A stretch of 64,000 nt of DNA from a virus. Below the pieces are notes generated by a model. It was not told where the DNA came from. It saw nothing but the letters and a program-made list of their open reading frames with translations, and searched no databases. The translations under genes and the position numbers were made by a program. The stretch lies in IMG/VR virus record IMGVR_UViG_3300035698_031273, positions 43,070 through 107,069 of that record; one strand, given 5' to 3'. Below are positions 50,858 to 52,190 of the stretch, in pieces. Every line of letters starts with the position of its first letter. Position 1 is the stretch's first letter.

Positions 50858-51699
50858 TGGAAAATGATTATGCCAAAAAAATAAAGGCTAAGTTGGGCAT
50901 ATATAAAAATTCTGAAAAAAATAAAATTAAAACAGATGGTGTCCAATTAGTTATGTCTAATTCTGAACTTGTTGAATATAACATAGTTCTCAAGAAAAAT
51001 AAAAAACGCCTATTGAAAGAAAAGATAGGAAATTGGGAAAATGTTGATTTTTTCATATATATGAGTAAAAAGTATTTTGATATTTTTTCCAAAAAAATAG
51101 AATTAAAGAAAAAAGGGTCATGTACTCAAATAAATAATTTAAGAGATGATGTAAGGCAATCTTTAGGAGATTGCGATAATTTTATTTTAAAAAATTATTT
51201 TGATTTTTATATAGATAGATTTTTATTTACGGTATCATCCTCTCCTTCGGGATTTTCATTTTCTAAAATGAAAAATAAAAAATGTTTAAAGAGCTTCGTT
51301 TCTTTTTGCAAAAATTTAATTAAACCGCAAAATAATGCTGAGGAAAAAGTTATAATTGAATTTTCTGAAAAAGAAGTTGAAGCAGCTTATTTATTGGGCT
51401 TAAATAGACTTGTGTGTGATTATGGGTTTTTTATATCTATACAATGGTTGATATATTACTGTAAATTTGATGTAAAAAAATCTTTTAATAATATTGTTAG
51501 AACTGTAGATAAATTGAACAAAACAGTAGATATTTCTAATATTATAAGTGTTACGGAAAAATTTTCTCCTTATCCCGATTGGTTTATTTTTAAAAAAGTT
51601 GATTTTTTTATATCCCGATACGGTAAAAATATGAATATTTGTTTTATTAATGACAATGAACAATTAAAGGAATTTAGTTTTTTAAGGTGTGAAAAGTGA
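50857..51699 (+). CDS. Hypothetical protein in the replication cluster
   Basis: I use ATG 50857, which shares a base with the helicase stop (TGATG). The product is 280 residues, rich in Lys and Phe, and mainly helical, with no cysteine pair, nucleotide-binding loop or membrane segment. It is not recognised. Tight coupling to the SF2 helicase upstream and to the initiation-factor gene downstream (a GTGA overlap) suggests a role in DNA or RNA metabolism. Confidence 0.65.
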   Translation: MENDYAKKIKAKLGIYKNSEKNKIKTDGVQLVMSNSELVEYNIVLKKNKKRLLKEKIGNWENVDFFIYMSKKYFDIFSKKIELKKKGSCTQINNLRDDVRQSLGDCDNFILKNYFDFYIDRFLFTVSSSPSGFSFSKMKNKKCLKSFVSFCKNLIKPQNNAEEKVIIEFSEKEVEAAYLLGLNRLVCDYGFFISIQWLIYYCKFDVKKSFNNIVRTVDKLNKTVDISNIISVTEKFSPYPDWFIFKKVDFFISRYGKNMNICFINDNEQLKEFSFLRCEK

Positions 51700-52190
51700 A
51701 AGAAAATGTGATATTAAATGAGCAGATAAGATATACTTTCGTAAAATTAGTGTTGAGTGATGGGCATATGAAGGGGGAAATTAGTATCGAAGATGCTTTA
51801 GATATAGCTTATGATGAGGGATTAGACCTTTTACAGGTTTCAGACGGAGATAAAACATCACTGCCTATTTGTAAATTAGTAAATTATGGTCAAATTAAAT
51901 ATAATAAATCTAAACAAAAACGTAGCAAAGAAATTATAACTAAAGAAATAAGATTTTCTTATTCAATATCAATTCATGATTTACAAGTGAAACATAAACA
52001 TGTAAAAGAGTTTATAAAGAAACGTCACAAAGTTAAATATCTGATGTTTTTAAAAGGTCGTCAAAAGGCAATGGTAGATAATGCTTTGTTAAAATTTGAA
52101 GAAAATTTGCATGATTTTGATGGTTTATGTCAATACGGTAAAGCAAATGTATCTAACAATACTATTTCAACTTTATTAGTACCCAATTGA
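51696..52190 (+). CDS. infC: Translation initiation factor IF-3
   Basis: The 164-residue protein matches bacterial IF-3 over its full length. The N-terminal domain shows LNEQIR (~7), the G-x-ISIEDALDIAYDEGLDLLQVS helix (~26-48) and PICKLVNYGQIKYNKSKQ (~57-74), the usual end of the N-domain plus linker. The C-terminal domain follows with TKEIRFSYSISIHDLQVK (~86-103), FIKKRHKVKYLMFLKGRQ (~111-128) and a last strand. IF-3 binds the 30S subunit, blocks 50S joining and checks initiator-tRNA pairing. GTG 51696 has AAGGTG six bases upstream and overlaps the previous stop. A complete virus-encoded copy could bias initiation toward phage mRNAs; this last step is inference. Confidence 0.93.
   Translation: MKENVILNEQIRYTFVKLVLSDGHMKGEISIEDALDIAYDEGLDLLQVSDGDKTSLPICKLVNYGQIKYNKSKQKRSKEIITKEIRFSYSISIHDLQVKHKHVKEFIKKRHKVKYLMFLKGRQKAMVDNALLKFEENLHDFDGLCQYGKANVSNNTISTLLVPN

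What the first reader, a model, noticed from the sequence alone, without database searches (positions are those of the whole stretch)
51696..52190. Full-length IF-3 encoded inside the replication cluster
Both IF-3 domains are intact. Virus-encoded initiation factors are reported from some huge phages but remain uncommon. Its position between an SF2 helicase and the split-intein ATPase, with tight overlaps, suggests expression with the early replication genes, which would let the phage adjust ribosome start-site choice when its GTG- and TTG-rich messages are made.
Basis: partly seen in the sequence, partly recalled or inferred. Interest (0 to 1): 0.7.

Follow-up and report, generated by a model that had tools for sequence, protein, structure and literature searches.

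The report
Phage-encoded translation initiation factor 3
A large uncultivated virus of bacteria carries its own copy of the ribosome-starting protein IF3 inside its DNA-copying genes; such copies are already known from giant phages, but here the gene proves to be a stable, inherited part of one virus lineage and not a stray host gene.

Summary
Window 51696-52190(+) is a complete 164-aa IF3. Both Pfam domains score above cut-off, AlphaFold2 gives mean pLDDT 95, and the best solved-structure matches are IF3. It sits between an SF2 helicase plus one unknown ORF and an intein-split AAA ATPase, followed by a DnaC-like loader, DnaB and a primase.

Two scans that did not use IF3 (ATPase, helicase) found 17 further IMG/VR contigs with this cluster. 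Sixteen carry IF3 at the same place: 15 intact (two near-identical), one apparently frameshifted. Contigs reach 548 kb. The 15 distinct intact IF3s, window included, form one clade (SH-aLRT 99.5); the closest measurable pair has dN/dS about 0.2. So it is a selected phage gene, not a decaying host copy.

Two parts of the interpretation fail. Phage IF3 is not rare (146 hits in one scan; PMC7162821, PMC7824862, PMC5259590). The phage is not GTG/TTG-rich: about 79-88% of its starts are ATG. Ribosome binding and timing remain inference.

New detail: three phage IF3 genes, one a sister of this one, appear to start at ATT behind a strong Shine-Dalgarno, like autoregulated bacterial infC.

The parts
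51696..52190 (+). infC: translation initiation factor IF3, 164 aa, GTG start
51702..51926 (+). IF3 N-terminal domain (about residues 3-77)
   Evidence: PF05198 residues 7-77; 1tif match TMt 0.86
51936..52187 (+). IF3 C-terminal, 30S-binding domain (about residues 81-164)
   Evidence: PF00707 residues 82-161; 2m71 match TMt 0.80
51683..51699 (+). Shine-Dalgarno-like AAGG and 4-nt GTGA overlap of the u281 stop with the IF3 start
   Evidence: read directly
50854..51699 (+). u281: unknown, mostly helical protein directly upstream, conserved in the lineage
   Evidence: no family or fold match
49301..50857 (+). SF2 DNA helicase
52199..53695 (+). AAA ATPase N-part plus N-intein half
   Evidence: AAA and Intein_splicing
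53725..54606 (+). free-standing ORF between the intein halves, HNH-like by eye (no Pfam match)
   Evidence: 50% identical ORF at the same place in L023
54587..55288 (+). C-intein half plus AAA ATPase C-part
55288..56100 (+). DnaC-like helicase loader
   Evidence: phrog_50 in 6 of 13 homologues, best E 1.8e-11
56097..57566 (+). DnaB-like replicative helicase
57571..58194 (+). DnaG-type primase zinc-finger protein
   Evidence: PF01807 E 2e-13

Best explanation
The gene encodes a genuine phage IF3. SHOWN by sequence: complete two-domain IF3 fold, inheritance within a lineage of large phages, fixed place in the replication cluster, purifying selection in relatives. INFERRED: the protein binds the host 30S subunit through its C-domain, blocks premature joining of 50S, and checks initiator tRNA-start codon pairing, as cellular IF3 does. 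Made with the replication proteins from a coupled polycistronic message, it tops up or replaces host IF3, so that recycled host ribosomes are split and re-enter initiation on phage mRNA when host protein synthesis falls. No change of start-codon preference is needed or indicated.
For: Both domains above curated cut-offs; confident model matching ribosome-bound IF3; core residues K94, D106, K110, G132 and R133 kept; IF3 at the same place in 16 of 17 other contigs found without using IF3; one clade of 15, SH-aLRT 99.5; dN/dS about 0.19 for L217-L218; stop/start overlap with u281 in the window, L217, L218, L223 and L228.
Against: No biochemical evidence. Several basic C-domain positions are substituted and the interdomain linker is short, 13 residues v 18 in E. 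coli. The host is unknown. One relative with the cluster lacks the gene (L306). Transcription timing is unknown.
Confidence: 0.62

Rival explanations
1. A phage-specialised IF3 that changes start-site selection in favour of phage messages.
For: Lineage-wide changes in the C-domain and a shorter linker; an ATT start in the sister L023 implies that IF3 level and start-codon stringency may matter.
Against: Phage starts are mostly ATG with Shine-Dalgarno motifs, so relaxed selection would bring little; positions may vary neutrally.
Confidence: 0.18
2. A host-shutoff tool: extra IF3 splits 70S ribosomes or occupies 30S and so lowers host translation early in infection.
For: Anti-association is the basic activity of IF3 (general knowledge); position with replication genes.
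Against: Phage messages would suffer equally unless other factors help; no such factor was found.
Confidence: 0.1
3. IF3 recruited to a non-ribosomal nucleic-acid role in replication, for example with u281 and the ATPase.
For: Fixed place among replication genes and tight coupling to an unknown conserved protein.
Against: Both IF3 domains and core residues are kept; most other phage IF3 genes in the sample show none of this cluster around them.
Confidence: 0.05
4. Host infC recently picked up and decaying, or host DNA mis-binned as virus.
For: Some 'phage' records do hold host infC operons.
Against: No rpmI or rplT beside it; conserved phage cluster in 16 other contigs; clade support 99.5; low dN/dS.
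Confidence: 0.01

Closest known systems
IF3 of RaK2/GAP32-type jumbo phages (phrog_9787; Eneladusvirus, Mimasvirus, Alcyoneusvirus) and Agrobacterium phage Atu_ph07
   Same: Phage-encoded two-domain IF3 of similar length, not in the host infC operon
   Different: About 30-35% identity; gene lies beside Dda-type helicase, ClpS-like and topoisomerase or virion genes, not in the SF2 helicase-ATPase-DnaC-DnaB cluster; separate clade
Bacterial infC (E. coli IF3)
   Same: Domain order, fold, core residues
   Different: Bacterial gene lies in the thrS-infC-rpmI-rplT operon with an AUU start; the phage gene lies in a replication cluster with a GTG start, shorter linker and altered C-domain
IF3 genes of the uncultivated lineage found here (L024 in a 548-kb contig, L217, L218, L302 and others)
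   Same: Same cluster, same position, one clade
   Different: 34-44% identity to the window protein for the members compared; start codon ATG, GTG or apparently ATT; no ATPase intein-split in L024-L027

Membership tests
Translation initiation factor IF3 | IF3_N and IF3_C domains in order, above curated cut-offs | tested here: met
Translation initiation factor IF3 | IF3 fold of both domains | tested here: met
Translation initiation factor IF3 | Conserved basic 30S-contact residues of the C-domain | tested here: inconclusive
   K94, K110 and R133 kept, R112 to K; R99, R116, R129, R147 and R168 not basic. The roles of single residues are from general knowledge
Translation initiation factor IF3 | Binds 30S and prevents subunit joining | not testable with these tools
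   needs biochemistry
Phage-encoded IF3 (phrog_9787) | Profile match and a viral genome context away from the host infC operon | tested here: met
Autoregulated infC with AUU-type start | Non-canonical start codon that IF3 represses | tested here: not met
   The window gene has GTG. The sister L023 lacks any ATG/GTG/TTG before the conserved N-terminus and has ATT shortly after AGGAG

The most novel reading that the evidence does not exclude
A huge-phage lineage has made IF3 a core component of its replication operon and remodelled its 30S-binding domain, with start-codon-based self-control (ATT start) in at least one member: a phage-specific start-site selection factor with its own regulatory loop, distinct from host IF3.
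Probability: 0.2. Interest if true: 0.62.

Novelty: new member of a known kind. Interest (0 to 1): 0.36.

Why it matters
Phage IF3 has been listed in huge-phage surveys, but in the papers read here only as one of many translation genes, with function proposed rather than tested. Here one branch is tied to a replication operon across contigs up to 548 kb with a single clade behind it. That shows it is kept by selection and gives about fifteen natural variants for testing what phage IF3 does to host initiation. The apparent ATT-started phage infC genes offer a simple test of whether phage IF3 discriminates start codons.

Tried and rejected
Pseudogene or host contamination: rejected. GTG/TTG-rich messages: rejected by ORF start counts with and without an ATG preference. 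A wider translation module in the lineage: no S21 or IF1 in the records searched, no tRNA in the 107-kb record, but 29 tRNAs in the 548-kb relative. Function of the upstream u281 ORF: no convincing family match and no fold match; the model is of medium quality. Promoter-like sites were as many as in shuffles, and 6 terminator-like sites v 3.2 expected, so transcription units could not be drawn. Terminase and tail sheath by Pfam: no match in eight records; phrog_2, which I took from memory to be the large terminase, matches the 548-kb relative, but Pfam gave that ORF no name, so viral identity rests on the IMG/VR class, PHROG matches and gene content. A first IF3 scan with the window protein alone found nothing. 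The host was not identified.

Full report
OBSERVATION. The ORF at 51696-52190(+) is real: 164 codons, GTG start. The sequence ttttttaaggtgtgaaaaGTGAaag shows the start codon overlapping the stop of the upstream ORF by 4 nt, with AAGG 8-9 nt before it. Pfam finds both IF3 domains well above the curated cut-offs; PHROGs names phrog_9787, translation initiation factor; PDB IF3 sequences match to E 1e-16. An AlphaFold2 model made with 25 phage sequences has mean pLDDT 95.3, and Foldseek places it on IF3 as bound to bacterial 30S (5lmn, 9ss2, 8jsh) and on the isolated N and C domains (1tif TMt 0.86; 2m71 TMt 0.80). Chance is excluded. The window is 43070-107069 of a 107,069-base linear virus record, and this is its only IF3.

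NEIGHBOURHOOD. In order on the + strand: SF2 helicase (49301-50857), unknown u281 (50854-51699), IF3, AAA ATPase N-part with intein half (52199-53695), a free-standing ORF that looks like an HNH homing endonuclease by eye (53725-54606; no Pfam match), intein half with ATPase C-part (54587-55288), DnaC-like loader (55288-56100; assigned through 6 of 13 homologues), DnaB helicase (56097-57566), primase zinc finger (57571-58194). So 'replication cluster' is right, and u281, not the helicase, is the direct neighbour.

IS IT A PHAGE GENE? Loci found through IF3 contain IF3 by construction, so I searched twice without it. The ATPase alignment A4 and the helicase alignment A5 returned 17 further contigs carrying helicase, loader, DnaB and (in nearly all) primase. 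IF3 lies at the same place in 16: L023 to L027, L217, L218, L219, L221, L223, L228, L299, L300, L302/L303 (near-identical) and L295 (domains in two frames). Only L306 lacks it, in a place where the ATPase is missing too; its 39-kb record holds no IF3. In L300, L302 and L303 u281 and the ATPase were not detected by tblastn. ATPase relatives at 41% identity or less have no IF3 nearby; of six of their records searched whole, one (G018, the record of L237) carries an IF3 about 16 kb outside the locus. Contigs reach 548 kb (L024), 494 kb (L302) and 351 kb (L217). The 15 distinct intact IF3s form one clade against 35 other phage and 59 bacterial sequences (SH-aLRT 99.5); an earlier tree with six members gave the same grouping (97). 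Quick-search trees of a short, diverged protein are weak at depth, so I claim only this clade, not its origin. For L217-L218, dN is 0.18 and dS 0.94; the window's own nearest pairs are saturated at synonymous sites (dS above 2).

HOW COMMON? One pattern gave 146 IF3-encoding IMG/VR places; 28 of the 80 kept lie in contigs of 200 kb or more (my count), and none of the 80 has rpmI or rplT beside it. INPHARED gave 97 records, but at least six of those examined (L006, L008, L014, L015, L018, L021) carry rpmI and/or rplT next to infC, i.e. bacterial DNA, so counts from that collection are inflated. IF3 in huge phages is already reported (PMC7162821; PMC7824862; PMC5259590).

HOW IT PROBABLY WORKS. 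Cellular IF3 binds 30S, keeps 50S away and checks the initiator tRNA-start codon pair (general knowledge); [quoted passage not shown] The window protein keeps the equivalents of E. coli K94, D106, K110, G132 and R133. By my own mapping (recalled Streptomyces sequence, not aligned here) it also keeps the three positions of the Streptomyces fidelity mutants named in PMC5472188. It has lost charge at R99, R116, R129, R147 and R168, and its linker is 13 residues v 18. Function as an IF3 is therefore likely but not proven, and some retuning is possible. Coupling to u281 by stop/start overlap in the window, L217, L218, L223 and L228 suggests a shared message; timing is inference.

THE START-CODON ARGUMENT. 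In the 107-kb record 65 of 74 called ORFs take ATG; with no preference for ATG in the scoring, 34 of 43 Shine-Dalgarno-supported starts are ATG. The lineage is at 77% ATG, relatives without IF3 nearby at 69% (p 0.08, GC 34% v 49%). The premise fails. A different link between IF3 and start codons did appear: 27 of 90 bacterial infC genes in the sample have no ATG/GTG/TTG before the conserved N-terminus, as in E. coli, but only 4 of 76 phage ones. Those are L023, a sister of the window gene (AGGAGAAAAAG-ATT), L051 (AAGGAG..ATT), L064 (GAGGAG..ATT) and L037 (AGGAG..CTG). Bacterial infC uses such a start for self-control (PMC5472188). Caution: about 10% of size-matched frames in these loci have their first canonical start more than 20 codons in (not all of those frames are genes), so the claim rests on the Shine-Dalgarno motif and the conserved N-terminus in each case, not on rarity.

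VERDICT. Observation confirmed; interpretation half right. Interest moderate.

Noticed in passing
L023:7986-8507, L051, L064, L037 (start regions of IF3): Phage IF3 genes without ATG/GTG/TTG before the conserved N-terminus; ATT (three) or CTG (one) behind strong Shine-Dalgarno motifs, as in autoregulated bacterial infC.
   Followed up: partly
window 52199-55288; L023, L025, L027 loci: The replication cluster is an intein hotspot: the ATPase is split by an intein with a free-standing endonuclease-like ORF between the halves (window, L023), and helicase (L023, L025, L027) and DnaB (L025, L027) ORFs are enlarged to more than 900 aa in relatives, probably by inteins; L024-L027 have an uninterrupted ATPase.
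   Followed up: partly
L295:5189-5675: IF3 N and C domains lie in two frames; a +1 shift at TCT TAA would join them. Sequencing or assembly error not excluded.
   Followed up: partly
L306:4683-5378: The only contig with the cluster that lacks IF3; the ATPase is missing from the same gap.
   Followed up: partly
L006, L008, L014, L015, L018, L021: INPHARED 'phage' records with infC next to rpmI and/or rplT: host DNA or mislabelled contigs.
   Followed up: yes
window 50854-51699: u281, an unknown mostly helical protein conserved directly before IF3 across the lineage, without family or fold match.
   Followed up: partly
L188-L215 (548-kb relative of the window): It has 29 tRNA genes, most in one stretch at 171-184 kb; the 107-kb window record has none.
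   Followed up: no
L003:5865-6998: DNA methyltransferase whose match to phrog_67 spans 364 residues for 224 profile positions, i.e. an insertion of about 140 residues.
   Followed up: no
L002:13210-14379 and L002:950-1804: A transposase (phrog_506) and a papain-family protease gene in the left part of the same virus record.
   Followed up: no
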